Shown: one piece after another, positions 14,478 through 64,000 of the stretch | Numbering within the stretch: position 1 is the stretch's first letter | How the letters are laid out: each line of letters opens with the position of its first letter | Origin: Polytrichum commune | Taxonomy: Eukaryota; Streptophyta; Polytrichopsida; Polytrichales; Polytrichaceae | Assembly (NCBI GenBank): GCA_950295325.1 | Contig: OX485806.1 | Location: forward strand, 57,841,169 to 57,905,168 | Direction of reading: 5' to 3' | Length of the DNA: 64,000 nt | The notes under the pieces: model-generated | Database searches by the model: none | What the model saw: the letters and a program-made list of their open reading frames with translations, nothing else | What the model was told of the DNA's origin: nothing | Translations under genes and position numbers: made by a program

Positions 14478-17400
14478 AGAGTGGTGGACCACTCAAAGGG
14501 TTCACATAAGTCCGGATCCCTTCCGGATCTCACCCAATCCTCCCAGCGACTATCCCACCTAGACATTACTCAAGCATCCAGATCAGTGAGGTTTCCCTCC
14601 CACTACACCCAGAGAGGATATGCAAGGCAATAACCAGATCGGATCCGGGTCTCTTCTCCCATGTCCTATCCGGAACTCCTATCCCTCATGCTCTCTCTTT
14701 CCTCCGCTAACGATCTCCGGATCATTCGTATACAAAATCAACCAAGGGAAGTCAAGGAGTGAGAAATCAAGGAATTTATTAGAGTAGGAGCAATCAAAAT
14801 ACAACAATGGAGAAGGAACCCTTCTCCAACTCCTTATTCAGCCTTAAATAGGGGCCCAAAATCCCTAAACTGAGGGCGGCGGCCCAGGCGACCGCCGTTA
14901 CGAAAAACCCTAACTGCAACCATTCTCCCGGATTTCCCGGATCAAGATCCGGATTTTCCGCTGACAGAACCCGAGGGAGAATTTTATTCCTCATCTTCAA
15001 AAACTCCTAAGTCCTATCTTCCTACCTCTATTCTGCCTAACTGATATAACTATCATCCTGACCTAAGAAGAGCGGTGCTTCTTCTGAGCCGCTCCCTCCT
15101 TCGACCGACTGCCTAGCCCACTGACGGCGGATGAGCCGCCTCCCGGCGACGCCTTCTGCAACCGCGTGAGCATCCTCCTCATGTTCGGAGAAGGGGCAAT
15201 CTCATCCTCCGAGTCCGCTGTTCACTCGGTCCGCAGTGTTCCGGTCCCTGGTGTTCCGGAAACTGTACTCCCCTTCCGGATGCTCCGGACCGGAGAAGGA
15301 TCACTTCCGATGCACTGTTCCGGATTCTGCCCGCCCGAGATCGAGGCAGTCCGCGGATCCCTGTTGGAGGCCGCCCTTGAGGGTGGCGGAGGGAATGGGC
15401 TAACCATTTAGCAGTCCGGCAGAGACGACGGCGAGGCTTGGGCCATGAGGGCCTTACCCCTACTCGGAGTTGCCTCTCGATCCAAAGTCTGGTGCCTTAT
15501 CGGCGTCCTAGCCCTGTCCGGAATCCGGGATCGATCCGAGGTCCGCGGAACAGGGGACTGGCCTCGTCCGCCTCTAACAGACCCGGTACTCTTCCTCCTC
15601 ACCTGGGGAGAACGGATCCTTTCCGGAGCTCTCCCGGAACTAGCAGGCCGAGAGCCGCCTTCCTGCTGGCTGGGTCCTGCAGACGTTGGCGGGTTCTGAA
15701 CCAGGGCGACTTCACCAACTACCTCGTAGAGGGTTCCGGTTGGTGACCCAGGCGGACCCGGATAGAGTACCCGCCGGGGTGTTCCGCTTGGCGGAACCAC
15801 CTTCTGGATTTCCGCCAGGAGATCCTTCATCGTCCGTGAGTACTTCACGAGGATGGGGAGGGTCTGCCTGGCGGAAGCGGGTTCTCCGGACTCCATCATC
15901 CGGTCGTAGAGATGCGCCTTGTTGATGATCTCTACCGGATGCCCCACCAGCTCCCGGATCCGGCTGAAGACCACTGCCTGCTCCGCGTGGTACTTCCAGA
16001 TTTCTTCGCTCTTCTAACTCAGCTCCTGAGTCATGGCCGCTACCTGCGCGGTCAGGTGAGCATTCTCCGTCTTGGCCTACTCGAGTTCCTTCCTGTCCGC
16101 CCTCTTGGCCAACTCCCGGAGGATATTTTCGGGTCCGCAGTCGTCCAGGGCCTGGTTCGCTCCTCGGACGATGTGTTCCAGCCGGTAATACTGGTTCTGC
16201 AGGTCCTCCATCCCCTCCTGGACCCGCTTGAAAGGATTTTCCGGAAAGTCCTAAGCAGATAGATCCACATTCCGCCACGTGGTCTCCCGGCTGGGGCCAG
16301 CTTCCGGATGATAATGAGGGGGAGGAGAGATTGGCCTCTGGAGGGGTGGCGGGCTTCCGGAATGATGGGGTCGCTGGAAGTCTCCGTCTTGAGGTCTCCA
16401 GCTTCCGGATGGAGCTTGTAGGTGACCTCGTCCGCCGCTATCGTCAGCAGGTCCTCCTCTTCGGCCGTGATGCAGTCGGAATGCTGATAGAGGTGCAGAA
16501 TGAAGGGGGAGAGGAAGGAGGGTTTCCGGCCTATATGGGGGAGGGCCCACCCTACTATCTCTTGAATGATCAGCCCCCAATTCATTGGCCGGACTCCGGA
16601 CATAGCTCCGAACAGGGTATTAGCCATGGTAAGGCTAATCCGCTTTGGCTTGTCCGGTTTTAGGATGGGCAGGAGGAACTCTAACACCCTCCTCTCTCTC
16701 AGATTCCGGCAGTTCCCGGGGTGAAAGCCGTCCTTCGGATCTGCGTCCCCTCTAAATTTACCAGCGAATAAACCATCGCGGCGGCCGGCCCATCCTTCCA
16801 TAATTCCCCTCGGAAATCCGTAGACCCTATTCCATACATCCGGAGTCCAACTATCCGGATCCCTCCTCTTGGTTCCTAACCACCGGTTCCCTCTCTCGAA
16901 CTTGAATTCCCGGAGAGTGTCTTCCGCTCGGAGGTTCCAGGGTTTGGCGACCAATCCCGCGCAACCCATAACCCGGAGATCCTCCGCTAGCTCTTGCAAC
17001 TCCCCGTCCTCCCTCGGAATTGCAGGGATGAGGGCTTTGAGCGGGACCGGGATGGGTTCCATCCTGTCCTCCTCCTGTGCTTCCGACATTTTTCCTCTCT
17101 TCTCTATCCGTCTCAACTGCGGAAACTCTCTCCCCTCCGGATTCCCTCTCTTCCGCCTAATTGCTACAGAATCCCGGCAAGCCAACTACCGGTGACTGGA
17201 AAGTGCGGAGTCCCAACAATCCAACTGCTGGCGGCTCGGAAAAAAACAACCTCACCACTCGTTCTCTCAACAATTTGCCTCTCGTGAACAGGAAAAAAAA
17301 GTGGGAGGGAGAAGGAAGGGACCCTTAAGTATCCTTCCTCCTTCTTTCTTCCCTTATTACCGTTTGGTTTAACGGAAAACGGTTGCCTAACTGTTTTCCG

Positions 17401-20161: not shown

Positions 20162-20393
20162 GGGTCCCTTCCTTCTCCTCCCCACTTTTTGCAAGAAGAA
20201 AAAAATTGTTGAGAAAACGAGTGGTGAAGCTGTTCTTTTTTCCGAGCCGCCAGCAGTTGGATTGCTGGGACTCCGTAATTTCCAGTCACCGGCAGTTGGC
20301 TTGCCGGGACTCCGTAGCAGTTGAGCGGAAGAGAGGGAATCCGGAGGGGAGAGAATTTCCGTGGTTGAGACCGAAGTTGGGAGAAGTAGGAAA

Positions 20394-22430
20394 ATGCCGG
20401 AAGCACATGAAAAGGATCGGAGGGAACCCATCCCGGTTCCGCTCAAAGCCCTCATCCCTGCAATTGCGAGGGAGGACGGGGAGCTGCAGGAGCTAGCGGA
20501 GGATCTCCGGGTTATGGGTTGCGCGGGGTTGCTCGCCAAACCCTGGAACCTTCGAGCGGAAGATACCCTCCGGGAGTTCAATTTCGAGAGAGGTAATCAG
20601 TGGCTAAGGACCAAGAGGAGGGATCCGGATAGTTGGACTCCGGATGTTTGGAATAGGGTCTACGGGTTTCCGAGGGGAATTGCAGAGGGATGGGCCGGCT
20701 GTCGCGATGGCCTGTTTGCCGGAAAGTTTAAGGGGGACGCGGACCCGAAGGACGGCTTCCACCCCGGGAACTGCCGGAACCTTAGAGAGCGGAGAGTATT
20801 AGAGTTCCTCCTGCCCATCCTTAACCCGGACAAGCCTAAGCGGATTAGCCTTACCATGGCTAACACCCTGTTTGGTGCAATGTCCGGAGTCCGGCCCGTG
20901 AATTAGGGGTTGATAATTCACGAAATAATAGGGCGGGCCCTTCCCAATGTAGGCCGGAAACCCTCCTTCCTCTCCCCCTTCATTCTGCACCTCTATCAGC
21001 ACTTTGACTGCATCACGGCCGAGGAGGAGGACCTGCTGACGATCACGGCGGACAAGGTCACCTACAGGCTCCATCCGGAAGCCGGAGACCTCAAGACGGA
21101 AACTTCCAGCGACCCCATCATTCCGGAAGCACCTCCCTCTTCACCCGGATGCCCGCCGCCGACCCTCCAGAGGCCAATATCTCCTCCCCCTAATCATCAT
21201 CCGGAACCCGGACCCAGCCGGGAGACCACTTGGCGGAATGTGGATCTCTTTGCTTGGGACTTTCCAGAAAATCCCTTCAAGCAGGTCCAGGAGGGGATGG
21301 AGGATCTACAGAACCAATACGACCGGCTGGAACACATCGTCCGAGGAGCAAACCAGGCCCTGGACGACTGCGGACCCGAAAATATTCTCCGGGAGTTGGC
21401 AAAGAGGGCGGACAGGAAGGAGCTCGAGCAAGCTAAGACGGAGAATGCTCACCTCACCGCGCAGGTAGCGGCCATGACTCAGGAGCTGAGTTAGAAAAGC
21501 GAGGAGATCCAGAAGTACCACGCGGAGCAGGCAGTGGTCTTCAGCCGGATCCGGGAGCTGGTGGGGCATCCGGCAGAGATCGTCAACAAGGCGCATCTCT
21601 ACGACCGGATGATGGAGTCCGGAAAACCCGCTTCCGCCAGGCAGACCCTCCCCATCCTCGTGAAATACTCACGGATGATGAAGGATCTCCTGGTGGAAAT
21701 CCAGAAGGTGGTTCCGCCAAGTGGAACACCCCGGCGGGTACTCTATCCGGGTCCACCTAGGTCACCAACCGGAACCCTCTACAAGGTGGTTGGTGAAGTC
21801 GCCCTAGTCCAGAATCCGCCAACGTCTACAGGACCCAGCCAGCAGGGAGGCGACTCTCAGCCTGCTAGTTCCGGAAGAGCTCCGGAAAGGATCCACTCTC
21901 CCCAGGTGAGGCGGAAGAGCACCGGGTCTGTTAGATCCGGACGAGGCCTGTCCCCTCTCCCGCGGACCTCGGATCGGTCCCGGATTTCGGACAGAGATAG
22001 GACGCCGATAAGGCACCAGACTTCGGATCGAGAGGCAACTCCGAGTAGGGGTAAGGCCCTTATGACCCAAGCCTCGCCATCGTCTCCTTCGGACTGCCAA
22101 ATGGTGAGCCCATTCCCTCCGCCACCCTCAAGGGCGGCTTCCAATAGGGATCCACGGACTGCCTCGATCTCGGGCGGACAGAATCCAGAACAGCGCACCG
22201 AAAGCGATCCTTCCCCGATCCGGAGCGTCCGGAAGGGAAATACAGTTTTCGAAACACCGTGGACCGAAGGAGCAGCGGACTCGGAGGATGAGATCGCCCC
22301 TTCTCCGAACATGAGGAGGATGCTTACACGGCTACAGAAGGCCTCGCCGGGAGGGGGTTCATCCGCCGTCAGTGGACTCGGCACCCATTCGAAGGAGGGA
22401 GCAGCTCTGAAAAAACACCGCTCTTCTTAG
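20394..22430 (+). pseudogene. LTR-encoded plant-transposon-like protein ORF
   Basis: One frame of 679 codons from ATG at 20394 (MPEAHEKDRREPIPVPLKAL) to stop at 22430, with two internal TAG codons at 20904 and 21492. Residues 1-240 are globular, with TPDVWNRVYGFPRGI, FHPGNCRNL and SFLSPFILHLYQHFDC, resembling the putative plant transposon protein family (from memory). Next come a Pro-rich linker, a predicted coiled coil (about 280-400: MEDLQNQYDRLEHIV, ELAKRADRKELEQAK), and a disordered Ser/Arg/Pro-rich tail (TPRRVLYPGP, RSPQVRRKSTGSVR). The stop at 20904 replaces a Trp still present in the left copy. The TAG at 21492 is present in both copies. The role is unknown; a Gag-like or DNA-binding structural role is only a guess. 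The low number of frame breaks across 2 kb implies past selection. Confidence 0.75.
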
Positions 22431-24790: not shown

Positions 24791-25286
24791 CCCAGGGAGT
24801 GCACTATTCAAGTACTGTATTTATACACGTGGGTGCACAAAAGGGGTATTATTTAAAACAAGCATGTACAAAATGTACGTACAAGAGACATATTGCTATT
24901 AAGCAAGAAGTAGATATACATGAGGCTATAGAAAAATATGTGTAAAGTACGCATTTACGCGTTTACGCGTTCAAGTTAGACCTGGACCAAGAATCATGTG
25001 TTTTTTCATCCACTAAGTAACGACTTTATAACTAAAAATCCATGATTTGATATTATACATATAATAGGGCCATATTTTTGCATTTCCAAACATTTGTACA
25101 CATGTTATATACAATTTCTGTATTTGTTTTTTGACCCTTGTGTATGTATGGAAATGTATTTTGAAGCAATGAGTTTTGTAAGTATATTGCTTGATTTTAG
25201 CAAAAATAAAATGTATACAGGGGTATTTTAATAAGGGGCATGCACGCACGTGATGCTTGGTTTTAATGAATAGTGCACACCCTGGG
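24791..25286. mobile_element. hAT-type MITE, 496 bp, TSD agccgcgt
   Basis: Terminal inverted repeats CCCAGGGAGTGCACTATTCA (24791-24810) and its reverse complement with one mismatch (25267-25286). The flanking 8-bp direct repeats agccgcgt are at 24783-24790 and 25287-25294. An 8-bp duplication is characteristic of hAT transposons. The interior is AT-rich with no transposase, so it is non-autonomous. It interrupts the Ty3 pol sequence between RNase H and integrase. Confidence 0.9.
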
Positions 25287-25573
25287 AGCCGCGTGCCAAC
25301 CTGGAACCGCCTCTCGATCACAATCTCCATGTCACCTGGCCCCGAAGGACTTAGATTGCGTGAGAGTCCATCTGCATCCAAGTTGGTAATCCCAGCACAG
25401 TGTACCACCTCAAAGTCATACTCCTGGAGCAATAAAGCCCACATGGCAAGCTTGCCAGTAAACTTATCCGACTCCATGAGCCACCGTAACGACTGATGGT
25501 CAGTCACTAAAGTAAAGTGCTGACCATAAAGATACAGCCGAAAATGGGCAATAGCCCATACCGCCGCCAATGC

Positions 25574-27955
25574 TTCTCTGAATTAAATGCGTCACATCTG
25601 AAGACATGGTTGGCCACCAATATGGGCTTTTGTGTACTTGCGTGAGTACCTATTTTCTCGTAAAGTGTGGTACTTGGTATTCATGTATCTGTTTTATCCA
25701 ATTCAATGCTTCCTCTCTTGTCACGCACATTTTTACTTCCTCATTAGGTAACCGATATTTCAAACCATCATCGGTTATGAAATAAGTATCGACGTCGGGG
25801 CTGAGTAATCCCAACTCTTCATGTGTGCCAATACGGTTCAACTCCTCAAAGCTCTTTAGTCGTTGTGTGATCGGTTGTCTCCAATCTGGCTCCGGTGTTG
25901 GTTTTGGTGAAGATAAGTTTTGACTTTCCTTGGGGTGTATCTCCGGTGTCTCCGTTTCTCTACAGGTTTTGCAGTATCTTTATTGATTGCACACGTCATT
26001 TCCCCATGTTGGCCACCAGTACGTCCCTGTGGCCACGGCCTTCCATGTTTCTATGGCAACCAAGTGGGGTCCGCTTTCCCCATGGGTATCGGCTAGGTAC
26101 CTGGGAACTTGAGCCTCAGGTATACAGATTTGGTTACTCTTTCCTCCTTTGCGTATCCGTTGTAATGTGCCGTTGGTGAACACAAAATACTTATGGCTTT
26201 GCTCTACCGCCCTTTTCACTTCTGGTGGTAAGGTTTGGTCGAAGATTTTCCTGCATATCAGGTATTCCAAGTAGGGACGTCTCCAATCTAGGTTCTTTTT
26301 ACCTAGAAGTGTTTGTGTTTCCTTCTCTTTTGCAAGTTGTGTTTGGTTGCTACATACCGGACATTTCCAATTGCACAAGTTTTTAATGTCGGCTCCGCAC
26401 GTGGGCCACCAGTATGGTCCAAACATGACTAGGTGCCACATTGTCTCTATGCCAAGATGTTTGTCTGATTCAGTAATATGTAGTTCCTTTAAGTATTCGT
26501 CGATTTCTCGCCTGGCAATACATATTTTAAGGTCTCCATCCGAGAATATCTTTTTTTGTTTTCTTTCTTCAATGAAATATTTCTGGTTTTGTCGAGTTAT
26601 CTTTTTGTGTTGATTCTTCGAGATGTGGGGTCCTTTCAAGTACCCGTATGTGAGGTATTCTATAAGTAATCTCCTCCAATCCTTGTTGTCATGGGCTTGT
26701 ACGATGACGGACCCGCAAATTATGTTATGGAGCAGGCCTTCAAATCTTCTTCGACAAGACGGGCAATCGTACATAATGTAGATTTGTATGTCGCACAGCC
26801 CCATCGTGGGCCACCACCGATTCCCTTGCGAGCATCGAAGCCAAGTTTGTTGATCGTCCAAGTGTCTTTGCTGGTGTACGTGCATTTTCCCTATCCAATG
26901 CTTTATTTGGTAACCAGCAATGCAGATTCTAGCCATTCCATTTTTTTCCAGTTTTCGAAGTTTTCCTTTCTCCAAAGTGAAAATTTTGCTCTCTCGTATG
27001 GTTTCCCGCTGCCCTCTTTGAGTCTCCATGTCCATTTTGAATCTTCCATGCGCCAGATATTCGACTAGAGATGTTCTCCAATCGTTAAAGGTCTCTTTAT
27101 ATGGTATAATGTCCGCCCCGTTACCCGGTTCCGAAGAGCTTGCTTCTATGGGTAACTCTTCTCCCTGTTCTTCGCACTCGGTGCATAGTGTGATGAGTAG
27201 TGAGACATCTTCCGCGATAGTTGGCCACCAATACGACCCTTGTACAACTAATTTCTTGGTGGCATTTATTGAAAGATGTTGATTTTCTCGTATATGGAGG
27301 GTCTTGATGTAACTCCTCACATATCTTCCAGGCATATATTTCTTTGTAATGCCGTTATAAAACATGCGATGTAACTCTCCTTCAATGAGTATGAAAAATT
27401 TGCTTCGGTACACTACCAATTTTCTCTCTTCTTTGGGTAGGGAACTCATCCAGGGGGTTCCGTGTGTTAGACAAGTTAGATGTTGGACATATGGTGTTGT
27501 CCAATCCGATTATGTTTTTCCTGTCATGTTTTCTTACGCTTCCAAAGGTTGGACAGGGAATGGATCGTCGTCGTCCTCGGAATCTTGTGGGGTAATGTTC
27601 CCGGTTTCGTTTCCTTGGTCAACAACCTTACATATTGGACATTCTTGACAGTATTCCAGTACGTCTCTTCGTCGGGTGGGCCACCAATATGGTGTACGTA
27701 GTATGTAATGCCATGTTGAAGTTAGATTGTAGTGTATCCCATTTTGCTCATGGGCTTCGCTTATGACTTCTTTAATGATGTCCCCGGCTATACACTCATG
27801 TATCTTGCTGGAGATATTGACTTGCTTGAGCTTTTCATCGTCTAGGACGAATGGCTCATTTAGTTGCCTCATCCTGTTTTGTTCTTGTGGGGTGGCCAGA
27901 GCTGACAACAACCTCCCGTGGGTAAGATACTCAATGAAAGGCGCTCGCCAATCTT
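25574..27955 (-). pseudogene. Element G pol: six tandem H2C2 zinc-binding modules
   Basis: Continues in frame from RNase H. Six modules of roughly 110-135 residues share a DWRxPxxEYL-like start, a hydrophobic strand region, a CIA-type strand, H-x5/6-H, an almost invariant YWWPT, and CxxC. Clear instances are AHEQNGIHYN...CPIC, LHIRENQHLS...CTEC, MHVHQQRHLD...CPSC, LHITESDKHLG...CPVC and THGESGPHLV...CKTC. The sixth ends at PYWWPTMSSDVTHLI, where other Ty3 sequence starts. Ty3 integrases carry one such HHCC domain ahead of the DDE core, so an array is unusual. In-frame stops lie at 27534, near 27507, at 25980 and at 25650, but there is no frameshift. No DDE core is present in the window. Intact Cys/His pairs in most modules suggest they were selected as folded domains. 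Confidence 0.8.
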
Positions 27956-29650
27956 CAAATGGTTGTACGTGTACCATAAAGAGGCTGGCGTCCGGAAACT
28001 GATCTTGTACTCCCGAGGGGTCTTCTCCGCTCTCTATCCTTGATAGGTGGTCAACCATTACATGGTTTCTACCGGGTTTGTAAACGACTTCGAAGTCGTA
28101 TTCTTGGAGTAAAAACATCCATCTTGCAATGCGCCCGGACACCACTGGTCGATTGACCAAGTATATCAGGGCTTGATGGTCCACGTAGAAAACGAAATGG
28201 TTCGCCAGTAGATAATGATTGAATTTGCCCACTGAGTAGATCATCGCTAGGGCTTCACCCTCCGTTGTACTGTAGTTCTTCTCCGCATTGTTTAAGAGTC
28301 GACTTGCGTAATGAATTGGAGAATCTCTATCTCCATGTATGTTTTGAGCCAAAACGGCTCCAATCGCGATGTTTGACACATCGCAGTGTACGTGGAACTC
28401 CATGGTCCAATTGGAAGTTACCAAAATGGGAGTGGTCGTTAACATTTTCTTCACTTCTTCAAAAGCCTCCTAACACGATTTGGTCCAAAGATATTTTTCT
28501 CCTTTCTTGAGTAATAAGTATAAAGGCCGAGTGATCTCAACGTACATCCATATGAATTTTCGATGGTATGTAGCTTGTCCCAGGAAACTCCGAATTCCTC
28601 GTACAATGGTTGGTGGAGGTAATCCCTTTATGATTTCCACCTTCTTCGGATCCAGCAACAATCCTTCCTTGCATACCACGTGCCCTAAGAGTCTCTCTGA
28701 ATTGACACAGAAGAAACATTTAATGAGACATTTTTCCAAATGTTCAATGTGGTCTTCCTTGGTTCCATACACCGTGAAATCATCTAAAAACACCTTCATG
28801 AATTTGTCGAGGTAATCGGCAAATATCTTCATCATGCCTCTTTGGAAGGTGGCTGGTGCACACATCAATCCAAAGGGCATTACCCTGTACGCGAATGCTC
28901 CGTACTCGGTAATGAAAGAAGTCTTCAGCTGATCTTCTAAGGCGATCATGATTTGGTTGTAGCTGCTGTACCCGTCCATCAACGTGTACATTTCGTGTCC
29001 TGCAACTGTTTCCAAGATCGATTCCGTAAATGGTAATAGAAAAGGGTCCACCTTCGTGACTGCATTCAATTTTCGGTAGTCGACGCACACTCGCAGTCTC
29101 CCATTCTTCTTGGGTACAATCACGATTGGTGACAACCATTCGGTTTTATCCACGGGTTATATGAATCCCGCTTCCAAGTACTTGTTTATTTATTCTTTCA
29201 CCATGGCTGCGTAATTGGGGTTCATCCTATAACGCATTTGTTGTACCGGCTTGGCTTCCGACTGTAGCTCAATCTTATGCTCGCATACATGAGGGGGTAT
29301 GCCCTTCATGTCTTTATATGTGAAAGCAAACACATCCTTGAATTTTAGGAGTAGCTCTTTCACCTTTGCTTCGTAATCTCCCAAGTCTTTCGCGATTTTG
29401 ACTAACTTAGGCTCCTCCGGAGTTCCTAAGTTTAAATTCTTCACCAAGGCTTCATCTTCAACTGTCCATCCTGCTATTTACTTCCCTTTGACGGCTTCTG
29501 AGGCAGGGGTGCGATCTACCGCGATATTCCCTTCTTTTACTTTGTAAAACTGGCTTGGATACAGCGGTTTCTCCTCCATGGCTTCTTGCTCCTTCTTAGT
29601 TGCTTTTCATTTTCGAGTTTTCTCGGGTTTATTTTTTTGTGCTTGAACAT
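27956..29650 (-). pseudogene. Element G pol: reverse transcriptase and RNase H
   Basis: Ty3/gypsy RT motifs on the minus strand: RVCVDYRKLNAVTKVDPFLL, TLMDGYSSYNQI, MPFGLMCAPATFQRGMM, and the catalytic VFLDDFTVYG (the family usually has YxDD or FxDD). RNase H follows: FHVHCDVSNIAIGAVLAQ, YASRLLNNAEKNYSTTEGEA, VDHQALIYLVN and GRNHVMVDHLSR. The N-terminal linker starts near MEEKPLYPSQFYKVKEGN (29579). Stops include TAA after AVKGK, TAA after MVKE, TAA after EAGFI, and TAG before EAFEEVKK (28470, where Gln CAG is usual). The RT-RNase H-H2C2 frame is continuous from 29153 down to 25650 with stops only. The N-terminal 200 bp are duplicated at 45596-45801. Confidence 0.85.
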
Positions 29651-29679
29651 TTCAATCAAAATATGGCCCTTCAAAGCCT

Positions 29680-30700
29680 TACTCCTTGACCCTCTCGGAT
29701 CCAAGAGGGTCCTACCCCAGCCCATACACAACAAGGCCGAAACATAAACCATATCAAACATACACTTAAACATACATGCCTCAAATCATTTCAATCAAAA
29801 TCAGGCCATTCATAGCCCTGCTCCTTGACCCTCTCGGATCCGAGAGGGTCCTAACCCATCCCATACATAACTAGGCCGACACAGAAAATATATCAAACAT
29901 ACACTTAAACATACATGCCTTGAACATTTCAATCAAAATCTGGTCCTTCAAAGCCCTACTCCTTGACCCTCTCGGATCCGAGAGGGTCCTACCCCAGCCC
30001 ATACACAACAAGGCCGAAACATAAAACATATCAAACATACACTTAAACATACATGCCTCAAATCATTTCAATCAAAATCACGCCCTTCAGAGCACTACCC
30101 AATGACCCTCTCGGATCCGAGAGTGTCCTACCCCAGCCCATACATAACTAGGCCGACATAAAAATTATATCAAACATACACAGAAACATACATGCCTCAA
30201 ATCATTTCAATCAAAATTTGGCCATTCATAGCCCTATTCCTTGACCCTCTTGGATCCGAGAGGGTCCTACCCCAACCCATACACAACAAAGCCGAAACAT
30301 AAAACATATCAAACATACACTTAAACATACATGCCTTAAATCATTTCAATCAAAATCTGGCCTTTCAAAGCACTACCTGATGATCCTCTCGGATCGGAGA
30401 GGGTCCCACCCTTGGCCATACACAACAAGGCCAAAACCAAAAACATATCAAACATACACTTAAACATTCATGCCTCAAATCATTTCAATCGGAATCTAGC
30501 CCTCCAAAGCTCTTCTCCTTGACCCTCTCCGATCCGAGAGGGTCCTACCCAGCCATACACAACAAGGCCGAAATCGAGAACATATCTAACATACAATTAA
30601 ACATACATGCCTCAAATCATTTCAATCAAAATGTGGCCATTAGGAGGAGACATCAATGACCCTCTCGGATCCGAGAGGGTCCTATTCCTAACATATAAGG
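29680..30700 (-). repeat. Palindrome-bearing tandem array (period about 139 bp)
   Basis: About eight units. Each carries a 24-bp dyad made of GACCCTCTCGGA followed by its exact reverse complement, centred on GGATCC. The dyads lie near 29690, 29830, 29970, 30110, 30250, 30390, 30525 and 30660. Between them, caaggccgaaacataaaaca, tcaaacatacacttaaacat and catttcaatcaaaatc recur. A further single dyad lies at about 31386. The orientation is the reverse of the arrays at 44.7 and 60.3 kb. It lies directly upstream of the element G pol start, so it belongs to or invaded that element. Confidence 0.9.
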
Positions 30701-37351: not shown

Positions 37352-39396
37352 TTAGTAATCCGGTGTGGAGGAGCTAGCCTTAGCTCCGGATGAAGCCGAA
37401 GGGGTCAAGATTTGGCCGGACAAAGCCAAACTTTTGAATTTTGCCTCCATCGCCTTCTCCCATGCGGAGAGAGGTCGTTTTTTCGGATGAAGAGTGAAAC
37501 AATGGTCCTTGGTGTGGTTTGGCTTACCACAGTGAGAACACGTCAGCTGCTTCGACAAATGCTTAGCAGTGTCCTTCGTCGGATCCTTAGCGAGAAAAAT
37601 TGTCTTCCGCCTCGGCCTTTCTGCGGTTGGGGCGTTTTTGTGCTTAAGGGGACAATCCTTCTTAGCATGGCCTGGCTCCCCTGTAAAGGGGTATGCTTCT
37701 TCCCTTGGGTAGTATTGGCTTCGGTAAGGGTATGTCGCTTCCCTCCGGTAATTGTCGTACGGGTACCGATCTCCTCTTCGATATTCCTGCCCATAATAGG
37801 GGTATTCTTCATCCCTTTGCTTATCTCTCCCTTGATAGGGGTATCTCATATCTCGCCGATTCTCCCCGAACCGCGGTCTTTCTTCATCTTTAAATCTCGG
37901 AGGCTCGGCTCCCGCCCTTCTCCGGTTGTTGTTCAATTGTGGTTGTACTTGATTCACTCCAAATCTCCTTTCTCGCCTTCTTCCATCATAAACACATTCA
38001 TTTGTATTGTGTGTAGTGCTATTGCAATTCGAACAACTCTTTAATTGGCACTCATTTGAGTAATGGCCTTTGTTGCGGCATCTCCGGCAAGTGACTCCCG
38101 TTCTAAACTTCCGAGTGCCAATGGCTAGTTCCTCTATCTCTTGTTTAAGAGCCTTTAAATCATCCTTAGTAGCATCGGCCTTCTTAGCCTTTCCCTTTTT
38201 CTTCCTTCTTCTTGCATCATCATCGAAATCGCTACTTGAATCTCCACTTGATTCGTCTTCCTTCATCCTTTCCTTCTTAGTCTTGCTCATCTCAATCTTT
38301 CGTGCCGAAGCTAGTGCTTCCTCCAAAGTATCACTTGGTAAAATGTTCACATTTTTTCGTATTCTTTCCTTAGTCCATTTATGAACCAAGTTTTTCTAAT
38401 TTGTTCTCCCGGTGCGGGTTGAATTTTAGCCGCCGCTACCATTACTCGTTCATAAAACTCTTCCACCGATTCATCTTTCTTTTGTTTAACATTTGACAAG
38501 TTGTTGATGATCTCTCCTTCCGATTTGGTTGATCGGAATCGTTGGATAAAAATTGTCTTTAAATCGTTTCAATTCAAAAAGTGATTCGCAGGAAATTGAG
38601 TTTACCATTCTAGTGTCTTTTTCTTAAGAGTCACCGGAAACAATCTTAGTTTCTCCGCATCGGTTCCTTCTTGATTGGCATGACATATATTGACATACTC
38701 TTGTATGTAAGTGTCCGGATCATCTTTTCTTTTGTATGTGGGAAGAGGTATCTTCCCTCTTCTAGGCGGGGGTGGCGCTCCTCCCGACATGGCTATAGTT
38801 CCACTTCCTCTTCCTCCTCCGGAACTTCCAATATTCGTCCCTAATGACGTTGTTCCGGATCTTGTTGTGCTATTAATCGGTACCCTATAGTCAAATAATT
38901 GCTCACTAGCCCTTACTTGTTGCAAAAATTCTTCAAATGTTTGGTTGACATGTCTTGACGTTGGTTCCTCACTTTGAGTTGTTGTTGAATTTTCGTTCTC
39001 TACTATGCTTTCTTGTGTGTCTTGATCAAAATTAATATTCCGGGGTATCCCTTCCCTAGTGTTCGTTTCGAATGTTCTTAATGGAGTGACGGTGTCTCCT
39101 TGCTCTTCTCTATTTATGTTTTCGTATTCATAGGGTGATGGTCGGTCTAGGTTATCGTTTGTTAGTGATGGGGATGGTGATCTAGATATATCAAGACCTT
39201 CGGCTCTTTGTCTTGCCCGTCTCTCATATCGTTCCGCTCTCTCTCTTCTTTGCCTCTCGGCTCTTCCTTCCTCGCTATTGGGGTTTACTCCATGTTGCAT
39301 ACGGTTAATGTGCTTACGTTCGGCCTCGGCCTCTCTCCTAGATGGCGGCGAACGACTTCGCTCCCTAGTGTCTTCCTCTTCGTCGTACATTAACAC
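37352..39396 (-). pseudogene. Element G gag with several zinc knuckles
   Basis: The N-terminal part is an Arg/Glu-rich charged region (ERSRSPPSRREAEAERKHIN, RRERAERYERRARQRAEG). A Gly/Pro linker precedes the capsid-type start (PLPTYKRKDDPDTYIQEYVN, LRLFPVTLKKKTLEW), and capsid-like sequence continues in another frame (TIFIQRFRSTKSEGEIINNL, ESVEEFYERVMVAAAKIQPA). The C-terminal part (38389-37352) has CCHC knuckles CRRCRNKGHYSNEC, CSNCNSTTHNTNEC and CSHCGKPNHTKDHC, plus a half-lost GEPGHAKKDC. Between the knuckles lies an Arg/Tyr-rich stretch with repeated RYPY or EYPY words. The break between 38602 and 38389 contains a stop and frameshifts. The role is nucleocapsid and RNA packaging in the cytoplasm. 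Multiple knuckles are uncommon but known in plant Ty3 gags. Confidence 0.8.
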
Positions 39397-39650
39397 TACT
39401 TAGCATGATCTTAGACCACCCTAGTTGGCCCTCCCGGCTTCAACTATGTGCATTCTATATTCACCCTTTCGCTAATACGGTTCTTAGGACACACTATTCT
39501 TCTTTAGTTTTCTCTTCCTCTTCGCCGTACATTAACACTACTTAGCATGATCTTAGACCACCTTAGTCGGCCCTCCCGGCTTCAACTATGTGCATCTGTA
39601 TTCATCTTTTCATTAGTACGACTCTTAGGACAAACTATCTCTTAATCTAA
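39371..39650 (-). repeat. Direct tandem duplication of about 140 bp at the gag start
   Basis: Two copies of cttcgycgtacattaacact, acttagcatgatcttagacc, ccctcccggcttcaactatg, each followed by tcttaggacaaact-like sequence, lie at about 39376-39510 and 39518-39640. The putative gag start codon lies in the first copy. Confidence 0.8.
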
Positions 39651-44649: not shown

Positions 44650-46140
44650 ATTTTGAATCTGTTTTATGTTTCGGCCTTGTTGTGTATGGGCTAGGGAAGG
44701 ACCCTCTCGGATCCAAGAGGGTCATCGGGTAGTGCTATGAAGGGCCTGATTTTGATTGAAATGATTTATGGCATGTATGTTGAAGTTTATATTTCATATG
44801 TTTTTTGTTTCGGCCTAGTTATGGATGGGCTAGGGAAGGACCCTCTCGGATCCAAGAGGGTCATCGGGTAGTGCTCTGAAGGGCCTGATTTTGATTGAAA
44901 TGATTTATGGCATGTATGTTGAAGTTTATATTTCATATGTTTTCTGTTTCGGCCTAGTTATGGATGGGCTAGGGAAGGACCCTCTCGGATCCAAGAGGGT
45001 CATCGGGTAGTGCTCTGAAGGGCCTGATTTTGATTGAAATGATTTATGGCATGTATCTTGAAGTTTATATTTCATATGTTTTCTGTTTCGGCCTAGTTAT
45101 GGATGGGCTAGGGTAGGACCCTCTCGGATCCGAGAGGGTCAAGGAGTAGGGCTATGAATGGTCAAATTTTGATTGAAATGATTTGAGGCATGTATGTTTA
45201 AGTGTATGTTTGATATGTTTTATGTTTCGGCCTTGTTGTGTATGGGCTGGGGTAGGACCCTCTCGGATCCGAGAGGGTCAAGGAGTAAGGCTTTGAAGAG
45301 CCAGATTTTGATTGAAATGTTCAACGCATGTATGTTTAAGTGTATGTTTGATATATTTTCTATGTCGGCCTAGTTATGTATGGGCTGGGTTAGGACCCTC
45401 TCGGATCCGAGAGGGTCAAGGAGTAAGGCTATGAATGGCCAGATTTTGATTGAAATGATTTGAGGCATGTATGTTTAAGTGTATGTTTGATATGTTTTAT
45501 GTTTCGGCCTTGTTGTGTATGGGCTGGGGTAGGACCCTCTTGGATCCGAGAGGGTCAAGGAGTAAGGCTTTGAAGGGCCATATTTTGATTGAAATGTTCA
45601 AGCACAAAAAAATAAACCCGAGAAAACTCGAAAATGAAAAGCAACTAAGAAGGAGCAAGAAGCCATGGAGGAGAAACCGCTGTATCCAAGCCAGTTTTAC
45701 AAAGTAAAAGAAGGGAATATCGCGGTAGATCGCACCCCTGCCTCAGAAGCCGTCAAAGGGAAGTAAATAGCAGGATGGACAGTTGAAGATGAAGCCTTGG
45801 TCCGAGAGGGTCATCGGGTAGTGCTATGAAGGGCCACATTTGGATTGAAATGATATGAGGCATGTATGTTGAAGTTTATGTTTCATATGTTTTCTGTTTC
45901 GGCCTAGTTATGGATGGGCTAGGGTAGGACCCTCTCGGATTCGAGAGGGTCATGTAGTAGGGCCTTGAAAGGCCAGATTTTGATTGAAATGTTTAATGCA
46001 TGTATGTTTAAGTGTATGTTTCATATGTTTTATGTGTCGGTCTAGATATGTATTGGCTAGGGTAGGACCCTCTTGGATCCGAGAGGGTCAAGGAGTAGGG
46101 CTATGAATGGCCAGATTTTGATTGCAATGTGCAAGGCATG
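44650..46140 (+). repeat. Palindrome-bearing tandem array, plus orientation (period 138-139 bp)
   Basis: About nine dyads of the same 24-bp type, at approximately 44700, 44840, 44980, 45120, 45258, 45396, 45534, 45930 and 46068, plus one half-dyad at about 45803. Spacing is 138-139 bp except where a 206-bp piece of element G pol is embedded. Linkers contain ttttgattgaaatgatttga, ggcatgtatgtttaagtgta and gtttcggccttgttgtgtat. The dyads at 44.7-45.0 kb carry a shared A mismatch (ggatccaagag), while later ones are perfect. Confidence 0.9.
45596..45801 (+). pseudogene. Captured start of element G pol inside the array
   Basis: Reverse-complement copy of 29444-29650: a leader with aagcacaaaaaaataaaccc, then ATG and MEEKPLYPSQFYKVKEGNIA, the same TAA after AVKGK, and VEDEALV. 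It is then cut, and half a dyad follows (ccgagagggtc). The two copies look almost identical, including the stop, so the duplication is later than the stop mutation. The insert interrupts the regular 138-bp spacing. Confidence 0.9.
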
Positions 46141-46208
46141 TATGAAATGACATTTGGATGAGATTATGACTTCAATGTTCTCTTGCATTTGTGTAGGAAT
46201 CACAATCC

Positions 46209-51605: not shown

Positions 51606-52578
51606 CGAAGCGGAAACTAGAAAGAAGACTTGGAGGCAACTAGAAGACTTGGAAGGCGATTAAGAGGACTTGTAGTTAGACATGAGTATGGAATGAGAGC
51701 TCGAGGGAGGTGAGTATTTCGTGTTTAAATTTTGATTGGGTAGTATAGTTGTTTTTTCATTGGAATGAATTGCATTTGATTTATGCAAATTCATTTATGA
51801 ATGGAGCGTGGCTAATATATATGCTAAATTCTTTTGGGATGGCATAACAAGATCACACTAATAGGATTCGAATTAGTTCACTAAGAATTAGAGAGATAAT
51901 TAAATTTTAGAAAATCCAACTTTGACATTCACCTCGGGGTGAGTCTCTAAGTTCTTAAACTAGGGGTTGTTACTTTTGAATTACGATTGCTAAGCTGGTT
52001 ATTGTATTGTATCAAACACGGTCGAGTGCGAGTGCTAACTTACAGGAGGAAGTGAATTGCTTGAGGTAAGCACATTTTTCAAAGTGAAAAGACTAATTAA
52101 TTAAGGAAGGATTTTCGTACTCGTGTTTGTCGTTATCCGTTGTAGAGGGTAATTTCCGAATCATAGCATCATGTTGAGGACAAGAGGGTGATGCCTCGGT
52201 CCTTAATGTGGTGCATGACAAAGGTCAGCCCCTCACTCTCGGTATCGTGGTTAGTGTCAATTCAAGGAATGACACGGAGGTGATTCTCCGGCTTGACTAA
52301 GAATTGACACGAACATGCATATCCCATGTTTGGGATTTTTTACTTAAGTGGGCTTGCAGGATCTCTTTCTTCACCTCCATAATTTATAAGTCACACCAAG
52401 AAAAATGATAACATTAAAGAGGGAAGTCGGTGAGGAGTGTGTTTGGTCAAGTAAGGGCTGATCGATTCTTTATGGAATGTAAGGTAAAACTCGATGTCAA
52501 AAACCAAATTTGACATTAGGATTAGAAAAACCTAAACGTAAGAAGGCATCATCTAGAATTAGCGAAGGATGAGAAGAA
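51606..52578. other. Untranslated leader of the complete Ty3 element
   Basis: About 970 bp between the primer-binding site and the first gag ORF. No motif-bearing ORF is seen. It presumably includes packaging signals. Confidence 0.5.
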
Positions 52579-54681: not shown

Positions 54682-57600
54682 GGACCGGACATTCCTTTGG
54701 ATGAGTTTGATGGTGTCGGCAATGCAAAAGTGGAGAAATCAAGTGGTTATGATTTGTGGGCCGACCTTAGTTCGCTCAAGGCGGATATAACCTTTGGACA
54801 ATTATTGGAAATTTCACCCGTCGCACGGAAGACTCTCAAGGATGGCATGCCCGTCAATAGGAGAATTAGAAAAGTGAAGACTAGAGTGGCCGCTAGAATT
54901 CAATCACAAGGAGGTGGAGATGTGAAGGCCATAGAGATAGATATCAACATTGTAGACAAGGTGGTCCCAAATGTGCTAGTGGATGGAGGTAGTACTTTGA
55001 ACATTTTGCCGGAACACACTATGAAGAAATTGGGTCTTGGTCTTACGGGTCCTTCGCCCTTGATTATAAACATGGCAAATCAAAGCTCAACCACACCTTT
55101 GGGAATGATTAAGGATTGTAGGATGACCACCGGGGGAGAGGAGTATTTAGTTACTTTTCATGTGATTAAGATGCATTCCAACAAGGGCTCATTCCCCATC
55201 TTGTTGGGAAGACCTTGGTTGAGAACGGCCGATGCCATAGTAGATTGGAGAGGTGCGAAGCCATCCATTACTTATGGTCTTAAGGATAATCGAGTCAAAG
55301 TGTCAATTGGGTCATTAGAAGGGTAGATGAAGAAGGAATTGTACCTACCATTGAAAGAGGAAGACCTTGACAAAATCAAGGATGAAGGAGGGGAGGCTCT
55401 AGTTGGAGTTGTTCGTCCCGGAAGTCACAACACCATCACGGACTCAGGTTCGGGAAATTTCAATCCTAGGTTCTATAATTATGGAGATAATGGGGAGTAT
55501 GCACAATGGTTAAGGGAATATCCCGAGTCGGAGTTCGATATATTGGTGACATTTCACCATCCACGTTTGAGCGACAAGAGAAGTTTGAGTGGCGGGGATT
55601 GTTCGTTGTTGAAGCCATGTGAGGTGCTCACCGAAGAGGAGTGGATTTTAGGGGGTTTGACGCCTTGGGTAGATGATGTGGATAATGGAGACGTTAATCT
55701 AGTGCACGTGGACGGGACTCAAGACGAGGATGCTATCTTGGAGGCTTCTAAATTAGAGGAACCTTTGCATTTTAGGACTACATCCACGGGGATAGTCGTT
55801 GGTCACGACATCAAGAATTATCCCGATGTGCCGGCGGATTGGTATAGAAACAAGGATGAGCAAACCCATGTGGCGGAGAAAGATTGGCGGTATGTAGATG
55901 TGAAGTTAAAAATGGCAAGGTCCGCCAAATGAAGATGGGGTCGAAATTGGAGGAGAACGAGGTTAGGGAGTATAGCGAGTTGGTAGATGAATTTAGCAAC
56001 ACCTTCGCTTGGTCATACGATGAACTTAAGGGGATTCCTAGAGAGATGGTGGAACATCGTATTCTTTTGATTCCGGGAGCAAAGCCAATTAAACCAAAAG
56101 AAAGAAAGATGAACCCGAAATTACAATTGGTGGTTAAAGCGGAATTGGAGAGATTGTTGAACCCCGGGTTTATTAAGCCGGTGGAGATTACGGATTGGGT
56201 GTCTCCAATGGTGTTGGTGAAGAAGAAGAACGGAAAACTTAGGATGTGTGTCGATTATAGGAAATTGAACGCGTGCACACAGAAAGACCATTTTCCCTTA
56301 CCATTCATCACGTTGCTACTTGAAGAGGTGGGAAGTCACGCAAGATATACTTTCATGGATGGGTATGCGGGCTACAATCAAATTTCGATTGCCCTACAAG
56401 ATATTCATAAAATGGTTTTGACCACACCTTGGGGGATTTTTGTATGGGTCGTAATGCCATTTGGGCTATGTAATGCCCCCGCTACTTTCCAAAGATTGGT
56501 TATGTACATTTTCAATGACTTGTTGTTTAAATTCATGACCGTGTTTGTAGATGATTTTAGCACTCAAAGTAACATGAGTGAGCACTTACATTGCGTTAGG
56601 GAGGCATTAGTGAGGTGTAGAAAAATGAAGCTAGTTTTGAATCCCGATAAGACATTCTTAGGAGTCAATAGGGGAGTCTTGTTGGGCTATGTGGTTAGTG
56701 AAAAAGGAAGGGAACCGGATCCGGAAAAGGTTGTGGCCATAAGCGAGTTGGGGACTCCAACCAATTCCAAAGGGATCTGTAAATTGTTAGGGCACGTGGG
56801 GTGGTACCGGGAACTCATTCCAAATTTCTCAAAGATAGCGGTCCCTATTACACAGTTGCTCAAAAAGGATGTCAAGTTTGAATGGACGAATGCATGCCAA
56901 AGGGCTTTCGAAGAATTGAGGGATAAATTGAGCACTTATCCCATTTTGAGGCCACCCGATTGGAGTAAACCCTTCCATGTTTTTTGCGACGCTAGCAACG
57001 TGGCGGTGGGTAGCGCGCTTTGTCAATCCACGGGAGAGAAAGAAAAGGATCAACCCATTGCTTACGCTAGTAAGCAATTGACACCGGCCGAACGAAATTA
57101 CTCACCACCGAGAAGGAGTGCCTAGCAATGGTATTCTCGGTAAAAAAATTTCGACACTACCTCTTGTGTAACCCGGGGGTCTTCTTTGTGGATCACATGG
57201 CCATTAAATATTTGGTGAACAAGGCGAAGCTAAGTGGTAGATTAGCGAGGTGGGTTTTGCTATTAGAGGAATTCGATTACACGGTGGAGTATAAACCGGG
57301 CCGCATGCACTTGCAAGCCGACCATTTGTCTAGATTGTCGGAAAAGATGGGAGAAAATACGGTGGACGATAGGCTAATGGATGATGATCTCTTTGTGGAC
57401 ACCTCAAGACCGGATTGGTACGCGGGCATCGTGGAATTCTTGACGACCCAAACATTGTCTGAGGAGTGGTCCAAAGAAGAGAGAAGGAAAATGAGGGTTA
57501 ATAGTAGACATTTCATGGTGTTGGGACATAGATTGTTTAGGAGGGGAACCGACGGCCTACTTAGGAGGTGTGTGTCCGCAACGGAGGTGCCCTCCATTTT

Positions 57601-58663
57601 ATTGGCATGCCACGATAGCGCATGCGGCGGGCATTTCTCAGGGCAACTTACCGACCAAAAAATACTTAGAGCCGGATACTTTTGGCCTACGTTGTTTAAA
57701 GACTCACACGATTATGTGAAAAAGTGTGATGCTTGCCAAAGGTACGCCAGAAATGATCTTAGGATGGAAATGCCACTACATGTCTCTTTACCATTAGTTT
57801 CTTTTTTTAAATGGGGAATAGATTATGTGGGACCGGTTCATCCTCATTCCTCAAGGGGGATGATTTACATCGTAGTGGCCACGGAATATTTAATAAAGTG
57901 GGCAGAGGCCAAAGCAGTCAAAACGGATACGGCCGCTCACGCGGCTACTTTCATGTATGAGAACATTATCACTAGGTTTGGATGTCCTAAAATCCTAGTT
58001 AGTGATAGAGGTACACATTTTCTGAATAATCTCATTCGCGAGATGACTAGTAGGTTTCAAATAGATCATAGGAAAACTACACCTTACTATCCGCAGACCA
58101 ATGGTCAAACGGAGCGTGTCAACGGGATTTTGGTGAGCATTCTACGCAAGACAGTTATAGACTTGAAGCGAGATTGGGACGTCAAGTTGACAGCGGTACT
58201 ATGGGCATACCGGACAACCTACAAGGTGACTACCCATGCCACACCTTTTTCATTGGTATATGGTTTGGAAGCCACACTTCCGATCGAATATGAGGTAGAA
58301 TCACTTAGGGTGGCCATAGGTTCGAGACTTACCGACAAACAATCCTTGAAGAGTAGGCTCACCGACTTGGAGGAGCTTGACGAACAAAGACGGACGGCCG
58401 CTCAACAAATCGAGGTGATTCAACGTCGAAGAAAAATCATCTTCGATAAAAGGCATAAGAAAATGGCACTTCAACCGGGAATGATGGTAATGATACAAGA
58501 CGCAAGGAAGCTTGAATTCCCTGCAAAATTTGATGCGGTGTGGTTAGGGCCTTACCTTGTGCAAGCAGTTTTTCCTAACAACTCACTCCACTTGGAGACT
58601 TTGAACGGCGGACTCTTTCCTACCCGCACTTCAGGGAGTAGATGTAAGGAATACAAAGCGTGA
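54682..58663 (+). pseudogene. pol of the complete Ty3 element (protease, RT, RNase H, integrase), decayed
   Basis: Aspartic protease core VPNVLVDGGSTLNILPE (about 54970). RT: RMCVDYRKLNACTQKDHF, TFMDGYAGYNQI, MPFGLCNAPATFQRLV and catalytic VFVDDFSTQS (about 56550). RNase H: FHVFCDASNVAVGSALCQ, YASKQLTPAERNYS, FVDHMAIKYLVN, HLQADHLSR. Integrase: a zinc region with HDSACGGHFSG and CDACQRYA, then the D-D-E core with GIDYVGPVH, LVSDRGTHFLNN and NGQTERVNG. Breaks: TAG at 55324 and frameshifts near 55890 and 57104. Every catalytic residue looked for is present, so damage is confined to a few stops and indels. The last integrase residues lie 59 bp before the 3' LTR. Confidence 0.9.
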
Positions 58664-60292: not shown

Positions 60293-61350
60293 CATGTATG
60301 TTTGACTGTATGTTTCATATGTTTTCTGTTCCGGCCTAGTTATATATGGGATTGGGTAGGACCCTCTCAAATCCAAGAGGGTTATCGATTATTGCTTTTA
60401 AGGGCCAGATTTTGATTTACATATCTTGAGGCATGTATGTATAAGTATAAATGTTTTGTGTTTTCTATTTCGGCCTAGTTGTGTATGGGCTAGGGTAGGA
60501 CCCTCTCGGATCCGAGAGGATCGTCGTTTATTACTTTAAAGGGCCAGATGTTTATTGAAATGTTTTAAGGTATGTATATTTAAGTATATGTTTCATATGT
60601 TTTCTGTTTCGGCCTTTTGTGTATGGGCTGGGGTAGGACCCTCTCGGATTCGAGAGGGTCATCGATTAGTGCTTTCAGGGGCCTTATTTTGATTTACATA
60701 TCTTGATGCATGTATGTATAGGTATAAATGTCTTGTGTTTTCTGTTTCGGCCTAGTTGTGTATGGGCTGGGTAGGACCCTCTCGGATCCGAGAGGGTCAT
60801 CGAGTGTGACTATGAAGGGCCAGATTTTGATTCAAATATTTTGAGGCATGTATGTAAATATATATATTTCATATGTTTTCTGTTTCGGCCTAGTTGTGTA
60901 TGGGTTGGGTAGGACCCTCTCGGATCCGAGAGGGTCATCGAGTGGGACTATGAAGGGCCAGGGTTTGATAGAAATGTTTTAAGGCATATATGATTAAGTA
61001 TATATTTCATATGTTTTCTGTTTCGGCCTTTTATGTATGGGTTGGGTAGGACCCTCTCGGATCCGAGAGGGTCATCGAGTGGGACTATGAAGTGCCAGGG
61101 TTTGATAGAAATGTTTTAAGGCATATATGATTAAGTGTATATTTCATATGTTTTCGGTTTCGGCCTAGTTATGTATGGGCTTTGGTCTATGTGTAAGCAC
61201 TAGTTTGGTTGTTAGTGTTGGGTAGGACAACTTGGGGTTCACGGGTTGAACATTTTGTTTTTTTTTAAATTTGTCATGTTAAGGGGTTGGACTAGTTAGG
61301 GACCCTCTCGGTTCCGAGAGGGTCCATCGGTTGGGGGGTTGATCCATATT
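60293..61350 (+). repeat. Palindrome-bearing tandem array, right part
   Basis: Continues the array in plus orientation beyond the Ty3 element. Dyads lie near 60360 (decayed), 60500, 60640, 60777, 60912, 61048 and 61302. The 60777, 60912 and 61048 units are perfect. Linkers are those of the 44.7-kb array (tttctgtttcggcctagttg, gtatgggctggg, gggccagattttgatt). The last dyad, at 61302, has a changed centre (cggttccg) but intact arms. Confidence 0.9.
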
Positions 61351-63062: not shown

Positions 63063-64000
63063 CTCCGTTGATTAGTTGAAAAGGTCTACTTCTTATCGCT
63101 ATTTGTTGTCTTTGAGAAGTTGTTGCCGGTGTTGTCAATCTCCCATGCGATAAGTAGTCAATAAATGGCGTTCCCCAATCCTCTTGTGGATCGGTAGTAA
63201 TTGCTCCGCATTGTATTTTAGTTGTTGTTTTCTTCTTACATTTCGGACATTCTCCATTGATATAATGTTCCGTATCTTGTGCTATGGTAGGCCACCAATA
63301 GGGCCCGTTGAATATTTGTTGAATAGTATCGTTTGGGTTGAGGTGACAACCATTTTGCTCATGCACCCTTTTGATTAGATGTTTGATTTGGTCTTCCGCG
63401 ATACATATTTTACTTTCTCCGTGGTTGATTTCTTTTCGTAATTCTCTTTCTTCCATAAAGTAAGTTTCATATTCTTGTTCAAATAGATCTCGATCTTCGG
63501 TTCTCCCTTGGTTCAAATATTCCATTATGGGTTTTCTCCAATCTACTTTGGTTGAATCATTCCTTTGTTGAATTAGCGTAGTACCATTTCTTTGCTTGTA
63601 ATTAGAATTTTCCTTGATGAAACTTCGAATGTCGCGAGTCATGGTAGGCCACCAATATGGTCCTTGTGCCGTTTTTTTTACCATCTCTTCACATGTTTGA
63701 TGTTTCCCATGGAGTTCCTTTAAAAGCTCTAGTATCCGATTCTCTGAGATGCATTCCTTGGGTATCTCGTTGGCGACAAATCGTCTCATTAGTTTTCCAT
63801 TCATGATGGCGAAGAATTGACTTCTATTCGCAATCCGTTCATTCTCTTCTCCGGTTAAGTCATTGCTCATTACCTTTCCGAATAATAAGTATTCGAGGTA
63901 AGGTTTTCTCCAATCCGATGTAACATTTGCTTTAATATAGTCACTTCTTTATCTTTTAGATTCATCTCTTTTTGCTTTCCATTGAGTTCTAACATGCATT
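63063..64000 (-). pseudogene. H2C2 module array of a second element G copy (partial)
   Basis: Minus-strand frame open from about 63915 to 63063. The first module starts SDWRKPYLEYLLFGK and has LHGKHQT, then GPYWWPTMTRDI, but lacks the second His and the CxxC (SNYK). The second module is complete: VDWRKPIMEYLNQGR, KICIAEDQIKHL, VHEQNGCHLN, GPYWWPTIAQD, CPKC. The third begins EDWGTPFIDYLSHGRL and is cut at 63062 by the 119-bp array, so the last residues are repeat-derived. It has the module architecture of 25574-27955 but a different sequence. It runs out of the window on the right. No stop is seen within the modules. Confidence 0.8.

What the first reader, a model, noticed from the sequence alone, without database searches (positions are those of the whole stretch)
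25574..27955. Tandem array of at least six integrase-type H2C2 zinc-binding modules in one Ty3-like pol
Ty3 integrases normally have one HHCC zinc domain before the DDE core. Here RNase H is followed in the same frame by six modules, each with a DWR...EYL start, H-x5/6-H, YWWPT and CxxC (the CxxC is missing only in the truncated sixth). No frameshift occurs across about 2.4 kb, only stops, and modules have diverged while keeping His/Cys pairs. This points to selection for a multi-zinc-finger protein, perhaps for target or RNA recognition or a separate accessory protein. I do not know a described element with this layout.
Basis: partly seen in the sequence, partly recalled or inferred. Interest (0 to 1): 0.9.

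Follow-up and report, generated by a model that had tools for sequence, protein, structure and literature searches.

The report
Integrase with tandem zinc-binding domain array
A group of plant jumping genes carries the front domain of its DNA-inserting enzyme in tandem, five or eight copies instead of the usual one, in a layout for which no published description was found.

Summary
The window carries two different, decayed copies of Ty3/gypsy elements whose integrase N-terminal unit (extension domain NED plus HHCC domain NTD, about 110 residues) is repeated in tandem between RNase H and the catalytic core. Database relatives, read as overlapping pieces, show family A with seven extra modules plus the canonical one before the DDE core, and family B with four plus one. 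Modules group by position, not by copy, so the arrays are old and stably inherited, not a local amplification in one dead element. Zinc ligands are more conserved than other module columns (B3 left out), modules far more than linkers, and net charge is fixed at some positions (A2, A3, A5 basic; A6, B4 acidic). B3 has mostly lost its zinc site. A confident model of module A1 matches foamy virus and Ty3 integrase NED-NTD. A separate two-NTD family suggests at least two independent duplications. Best mechanism, inferred only: the array supplies in one chain the extra NED-NTD units that other intasomes obtain from additional subunits. No DNA-level selection test was possible, because whole-genome protein searches did not complete. 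Open-licence paper searches showed no description.

The parts
28473..29156 (-). Copy A: reverse transcriptase fragment of pol
   Evidence: RVT_1 PF00078 68.2 bits
28098..28406 (-). Copy A: RNase H
   Evidence: PF17917 109.2 bits at residues 22-124 of window:27537-28469:-
27627..27953 (-). Module A1 (NED+NTD)
   Evidence: PF17921 41.6 bits alone; AF2 pLDDT 90.6; fold match to PFV and Ty3 integrase
27171..27506 (-). Module A2
   Evidence: PF17921 29.4 bits alone; all four ligands in 7 of 7 copies
26751..27083 (-). Module A3
   Evidence: no Pfam match alone; module profile (built with this module among its seeds); all four ligands in 6 of 6 copies
26349..26681 (-). Module A4
   Evidence: PF17921 27.6 bits alone; all four ligands in 10 of 10 copies
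25959..26288 (-). Module A5, interrupted by a stop in this copy
25575..25886 (-). Module A6, with a stop, truncated before CxxC
25013..25582 (-). RNase H fragment of a different Ty3-like element that cuts copy A off
   Evidence: ORF list, identified by eye from its motifs, not scanned
63601..63915 (-). Copy B: module B3, CxxC lost
   Evidence: PF17921 28.4 bits
63235..63543 (-). Copy B: module B4
   Evidence: PF17921 29.9 bits
63061..63180 (-). Copy B: start of canonical module B5, cut off by the 105-bp tandem repeat
   Evidence: module profile 22.3 bits; TRF array 62277-63064
57413..57739 (+). Single canonical NED+NTD of another Ty3-like element in the window, used as control
   Evidence: PF17921 46.5 bits; rve 33.7 bits follows in the same frame

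Best explanation
What it is (shown): a lineage of Ty3/gypsy LTR retrotransposons whose pol encodes RT, RNase H, an array of four (family B) or seven (family A) extra integrase NED-NTD modules, the canonical NED-NTD, then the DDE core. How it works (inferred): integrases assemble on the two LTR ends as multimers in which NEDs and NTDs contact LTR DNA and other subunits, and some intasomes include many catalytically idle subunits that contribute such contacts. Here the array would supply these units in one chain. Basic modules (A2, A3, A5) would bind LTR or other DNA; acidic ones (A6, B4) and the mostly zinc-less B3 would make protein contacts or act as spacers. The array would act as a cis scaffold that helps assemble or orient the intasome. 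I put the architecture at about 0.95 and the scaffold mechanism at about 0.4.
Against: No biochemistry and no DNA-level dN/dS. B3 keeps CxxC in 1 of 10 members and A6 is leaky, so not every module is a zinc domain. A4 and A7 have no fixed charge sign. DDE-less derivatives keep part of the array (P0014, P0029, and P0017, P0019, P0024, P0025 with one shared junction, by eye), which an intasome-only role does not predict. The model of the whole P0004 chain is poor (mean pLDDT 46.4, pTM 0.26), so the arrangement of modules is unknown. Protease could release the array from the core.
Confidence: 0.45

Rival explanations
1. Targeting array: the extra modules bind a host chromatin or transcription factor, or target DNA, many times over and steer integration.
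For: The Ty3 NED was reported to interact with TFIIIC (passage, PMC8632968); lentiviral intasomes can bind many copies of a host factor through CCD and NTD surfaces (passages, PMC9065133); modules differ in charge by position.
Against: Target sites of A and B copies could not be collected (whole-genome protein searches unanswered). No host partner known.
Confidence: 0.2
2. Accessory nucleic-acid or particle protein: protease frees the array, or pieces of it, as a separate protein that binds genomic RNA or cDNA rather than working in the intasome.
For: DDE-less derivatives keep modules in frame with the C-terminal tail: 4 of 34 hits share one junction, and P0014 and P0029 have other junctions (by eye). 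A2, A3, A5 are basic.
Against: In the long proteins that reach the core the canonical module follows the array directly; acidic modules are unlikely nucleic-acid binders; the deletions may be ordinary decay.
Confidence: 0.17
3. Neutral ratchet: in-frame duplications spread with the element and persist because they do no harm; conservation reflects folding constraint on a passenger.
For: Extra modules diverge faster than the canonical one and the core; B3 is losing its zinc site and A6 is leaky.
Against: Modules are old and keep their order, and ligands are conserved; open frames of 787-956 aa exist; a second family appears to have duplicated the unit independently; reverse transcription tends to delete repeats (recalled).
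Confidence: 0.15
4. Decay artefact or chimera in a single dead element.
For: Both window copies are broken.
Against: Two or more modules in tandem occur in 29 of the 45 proteins of the first two searches (count), in consistent order, from ENA, JGI and Logan contigs.
Confidence: 0.02

Closest known systems
Ty3/gypsy (Metaviridae) integrase, such as yeast Ty3 (PDB 7q5b)
   Different: One NED-NTD per integrase in Ty3 (passages); five or eight here. Of the 11 extra positions nine show H-x5-H, A4 H-x6-H and B3 H-x2-H in the seed alignment, against H-x6-H in A8, B5 and the window control
Prototype foamy virus integrase and intasome
   Different: Single module per chain (recalled)
Multimeric lentiviral (MVV) intasome
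   Same: Many NTDs in one assembly (passages, PMC9065133)
   Different: Multiplicity there comes from sixteen chains, not from tandem domains in one chain
Two-NTD family found here (P0053, P0054, P0055, P0063, P0080)
   Same: Extra NED-NTD before the canonical NTD; in P0053 between RNase H and the DDE core, by Pfam
   Different: One extra module; its modules group with each other and with a fern single-NTD protein (P0060, Adiantum nelumboides) at 94/91, not with families A and B
Plant Ty3/gypsy clades of the REXdb survey (OTA, Phygy, Selgy, chromoviruses)
   Same: Plant elements with the same basic polyprotein
   Different: In the passages read the survey lists integrase as one domain, and the words zinc and additional domain have no occurrence in its main text (PMC6317226); clade placement of A and B not tested

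Membership tests
Ty3/gypsy LTR retrotransposon | RT and RNase H upstream of integrase in pol | tested here: met
   RVT_1 and RT_RNaseH upstream of the modules in copy A and in copy B, L009
Ty3/gypsy LTR retrotransposon | H2C2 domain and DDE (rve) core in integrase | tested here: met
   In relatives P0004 (rve 39.9 bits), P0028 (32.8) and P0036 (33.1), cut-off 32.6; P0032, which ends inside the core, scores 20.2. Not in the window copies, which are truncated before the core
Ty3/gypsy LTR retrotransposon | RT phylogeny within Ty3/gypsy | not tested
   No RT tree was made; placement rests on domain order and Pfam families
Ty3/gypsy LTR retrotransposon | Flanking LTRs and primer-binding site | not tested
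   No intact copy was examined; copies A and B are cut by other repeats
Canonical integrase architecture with one NTD | A single NED-NTD before the DDE core | tested here: not met
   Eight positional modules in A, five in B, counted from overlapping pieces
Integrase NED-NTD module | Fold: helices and three strands, then a three-helix HHCC domain | tested here: met
   A1 model pLDDT 90.6; PFV, Ty3 and MLV integrase are the top entries. Only module A1 was modelled alone
Integrase NED-NTD module | Complete H,H,C,C zinc ligands | tested here: inconclusive
   Kept in most A2-A5, A7 and B4 members; B3 keeps CxxC in 1 of 10 and the second H in 5 of 10; A6 second H 10 of 13, last C 7 of 13, some through truncation. 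Zinc binding not measured
Chromovirus (chromodomain Ty3/gypsy) | C-terminal chromodomain | tested here: inconclusive
   No chromodomain match in P0014, P0028, P0029 and none listed for P0046 or P0047; some tails are incomplete
Ginger or other integrase-like DNA transposons and domesticated genes | Integrase without RT and RNase H | tested here: not met
   RT and RNase H adjoin the array in both window families

The most novel reading that the evidence does not exclude
A retroelement lineage has converted the multi-subunit intasome into a single-chain multivalent one: tandem NED-NTD modules, specialised by charge and position, replace the idle integrase subunits that other retroelements recruit, and the same trick arose at least twice.
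Probability: 0.33. Interest if true: 0.85.

Novelty: new variant of a known kind. Interest (0 to 1): 0.74.

Why it matters
Why intasomes range from four to sixteen integrase chains, and what the idle chains contribute, is an open question (range from passages of PMC9065133; its openness is my judgement). A natural integrase with five or eight covalently linked NED-NTD units, ordered and specialised by position, would let one ask directly whether extra NTDs are scaffold, DNA clamps or targeting handles. It also shows that the domain architecture of Ty3/gypsy pol is less fixed than a scheme with one integrase domain suggests.

Tried and rejected
Rejected: single dead copy (tandem modules in 29 of the 45 proteins of the first two searches, count). 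Rejected: a C2H2 transcription-factor-like zinc-finger array (fold and Pfam say integrase NTD). Rejected: a Ginger-type transposon or host gene (RT and RNase H adjoin). A single origin of all extra modules, including those of the two-NTD family, was tested and disfavoured (AU p 0.0245), but the group was named after the tree was seen, and 61 of 142 modules were used.

Led nowhere: viral-contig scans with P0004 and P0015 confirmed no relatives. NCBIfam gave no match near a cut-off. The whole P0004 fold was too poor to use beyond the cores of A6 and A7. No further A or B modules in the 200 kb of L010-L029 to the right of L009; four other weak H2C2-like stretches there, in L010, L013 and L024, belong to other elements by eye. 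Splicing as the source of the shared B deletion junction was judged unlikely by eye (no GT donor seen in the window copy at that point); not tested further. Host identity: the genome is 407.8 Mb in 64 contigs, and the named relatives are from a fern, liverworts and seed plants plus one tick entry, so a non-seed land plant, perhaps a moss, is my guess; a paper search did not settle it.

Not done: dN/dS, copy number, LTR dating and target sites, because the whole-genome protein search did not complete.

Full report
Observation. The frame at window:25574-28469:- reads RNase H followed by six repeated modules with four stops and no frame change. Pfam gives Integrase_H2C2 at 57.2 and 40.1 bits on the two stop-free pieces, and RNase H at 109 bits. 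Scanned singly, A1, A2 and A4 pass the H2C2 cut-off and A3 does not match; A5 and A6 were not scanned singly because of their stops. A module profile built from window and relative modules finds all six, plus two and a part in a second array at 63061-63915, and one canonical module in another element at 57413-57739. Those profile scores are not independent, since these modules, except the part of B5, were among its seeds.

The second array is a different family. The flank of the window in its genome (L009) shows copy B running RT-RNase H (820 aa piece, RVT_1 82.5 and RNase H 116 bits), then B1, B2, B3, B4 and the start of B5, with stops in B1 and a frame change between B2 and B3. It is cut inside B5 by a 105-bp tandem repeat. 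Copy A is cut inside A6 where another element's RNase H begins. Both window copies are dead.

Relatives. Three protein searches gave 14, 34 and 54 hits, 94 different proteins (P0001-P0094), of which those from P0051 on are mostly more distant single-NTD elements. Of the 45 proteins of the first two searches 29 hold two or more modules (stretches over 60 profile positions). P0001 (787 aa, no stop) spans the end of A1 to the start of A7. P0046 (956 aa) spans A4-A8, the DDE core and further; P0047 (954 aa) spans A5-A8, the DDE core and the tail; P0004 (849 aa) spans the end of A3 to A8 and the core. P0015 spans B2-B5 and ends just inside the core; P0042 spans B1-B2. No single protein seen spans RNase H to the core; the count of eight in A and five in B rests on overlapping pieces plus the two genomic copies. 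Named, more distant relatives are from Adiantum nelumboides, Riccia, Calypogeia, a pine-like entry, Malus and Zingiber, plus a tick entry at the bottom of the list.

History. In a FastTree of 93 modules and another of 142, modules of one position from different copies group together, with long branches between positions. In an IQ-TREE of 61 modules that I selected, the 16 labels need 15 changes, the least possible; the extra A and B modules form a group at 100/99 apart from the canonical A8 and B5; B4, A6 and A7 group at 99/97; all A and B modules together are one side of a branch at 100/100. Groups B5 (79/35), B1 (86/82), A8 (95/73) and B4 (97/73) are themselves not strongly supported. So the array grew before the sampled copies diverged and has been inherited in order. 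Five other proteins carry two modules (P0053, P0054, P0055, P0063, P0080). Their extra modules form a group (95/93) next to their own canonical ones (99/84; the two together 88/75) and a fern single-NTD protein (94/91). Forcing all extra modules into one clade is rejected at p 0.0245, a post hoc test, so at least two duplications are likely, not proven.

Constraint. Without DNA of the relatives I could not compute dN/dS. Indirect evidence: (i) in seven positional groups (A2-A7 and B4; B3 left out, A1, A8, B1, B2, B5 not used) ligand columns average 0.963 modal identity (27 columns) against 0.808 for 736 other columns, Mann-Whitney p 1.2e-6; in B3 ligand columns are less conserved than others, 0.70 against 0.89; (ii) among eight chosen A proteins mean identity is 0.90 in DDE (15 pairs), 0.79 in A8 (28), 0.66-0.76 in A4-A7 (3 to 28 pairs) and 0.33-0.47 in the linkers (3 to 28 pairs); the pairs differ between segments; (iii) nonsense changes are 0.080 per missense opportunity in the window ORF, so about 150 amino-acid differences between P0001 and the window piece (70% identity over 509 residues) would bring about 12 stops over both lineages if neutral; P0001 has none and the window frame has four in all, although predicted proteins are a biased sample. 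Against: B3 keeps CxxC in 1 of 10 members, and A6 has lost ligands in several (some gaps are truncations).

Specialisation. Net charge is set at some positions: A2 mean +5.3 (7 modules), A3 +6.3 (6), A5 +5.1 (11), all positive; A6 -6.6 (12, all negative); B4 -6.1 (12: 11 negative, one zero); A8 +2.6 (8, all positive). A4, A7, B1 and B3 vary in sign (six partial modules of the earlier lists were left out of this count). This suggests different partners for different modules; it is only suggestive.

Mechanism. Passages read say that the Ty3 NED stabilises contact with the LTRs and was reported to interact with TFIIIC (PMC8632968), and that in the 16-chain MVV intasome only two chains are catalytic while NTDs of numerous chains make DNA and protein contacts, the NTD being critical for tetramerisation (PMC9065133). 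A chain with five or eight NED-NTD units could supply such contacts in cis. Shown: domain identity, order, age, conservation, charge pattern. Inferred: LTR or integrase binding by the extra modules, scaffold function, and lack of processing. Rivals are targeting, a separate nucleic-acid-binding protein, and a neutral ratchet. The DDE-less derivatives are the main observation that the scaffold idea does not explain: P0017, P0019, P0024 and P0025 join B5's start to the C-terminal tail at one shared junction (4 of 34 hits), and P0014 and P0029 have other joins (read by eye). They may be non-autonomous elements or decay.

Novelty. Searches of open-licence papers (listings only) showed no title or abstract start about tandem integrase NTDs; the plant survey PMC6317226 was read in passages only. 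Subscription papers and repeat databases were not searched, so an undescribed status is likely, not certain. I file it as a new variant of Ty3/gypsy elements, on domain order and Pfam families; no RT tree was made.

Noticed in passing
29648-30684, 44660-46144, 60293-61186: A 139-bp tandem repeat with a 24-bp palindrome; 10 exact copies of the palindrome in the window, 9 of them in these stretches. One array lies just upstream of copy A's pol fragment.
   Followed up: partly
62277-63064: A 105-bp tandem repeat, 7.5 copies, 93% matches, that cuts copy B inside module B5.
   Followed up: partly
52573-58663: A Ty3-like element split over several ORFs, with a single canonical NED-NTD and DDE core in one frame.
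   Followed up: partly
15408-17185 (-) and 20325-22430 (+): Two similar ORF sets in opposite orientation, by eye two copies of another element.
   Followed up: no
P0017, P0019, P0024, P0025: Four B proteins share one junction that removes the DDE core but keeps modules and the C-terminal tail (by eye): possible non-autonomous subfamily.
   Followed up: partly
P0053, P0054, P0055, P0063, P0080: A separate family with two integrase NTDs, probably an independent duplication.
   Followed up: partly
37355-38395 (-) and 38605-39399 (-): Gag-like ORF with CCHC knuckles (24.1 bits) and a neighbouring ORF without Pfam match, on the same strand as copy A; they may be its displaced gag.
   Followed up: no
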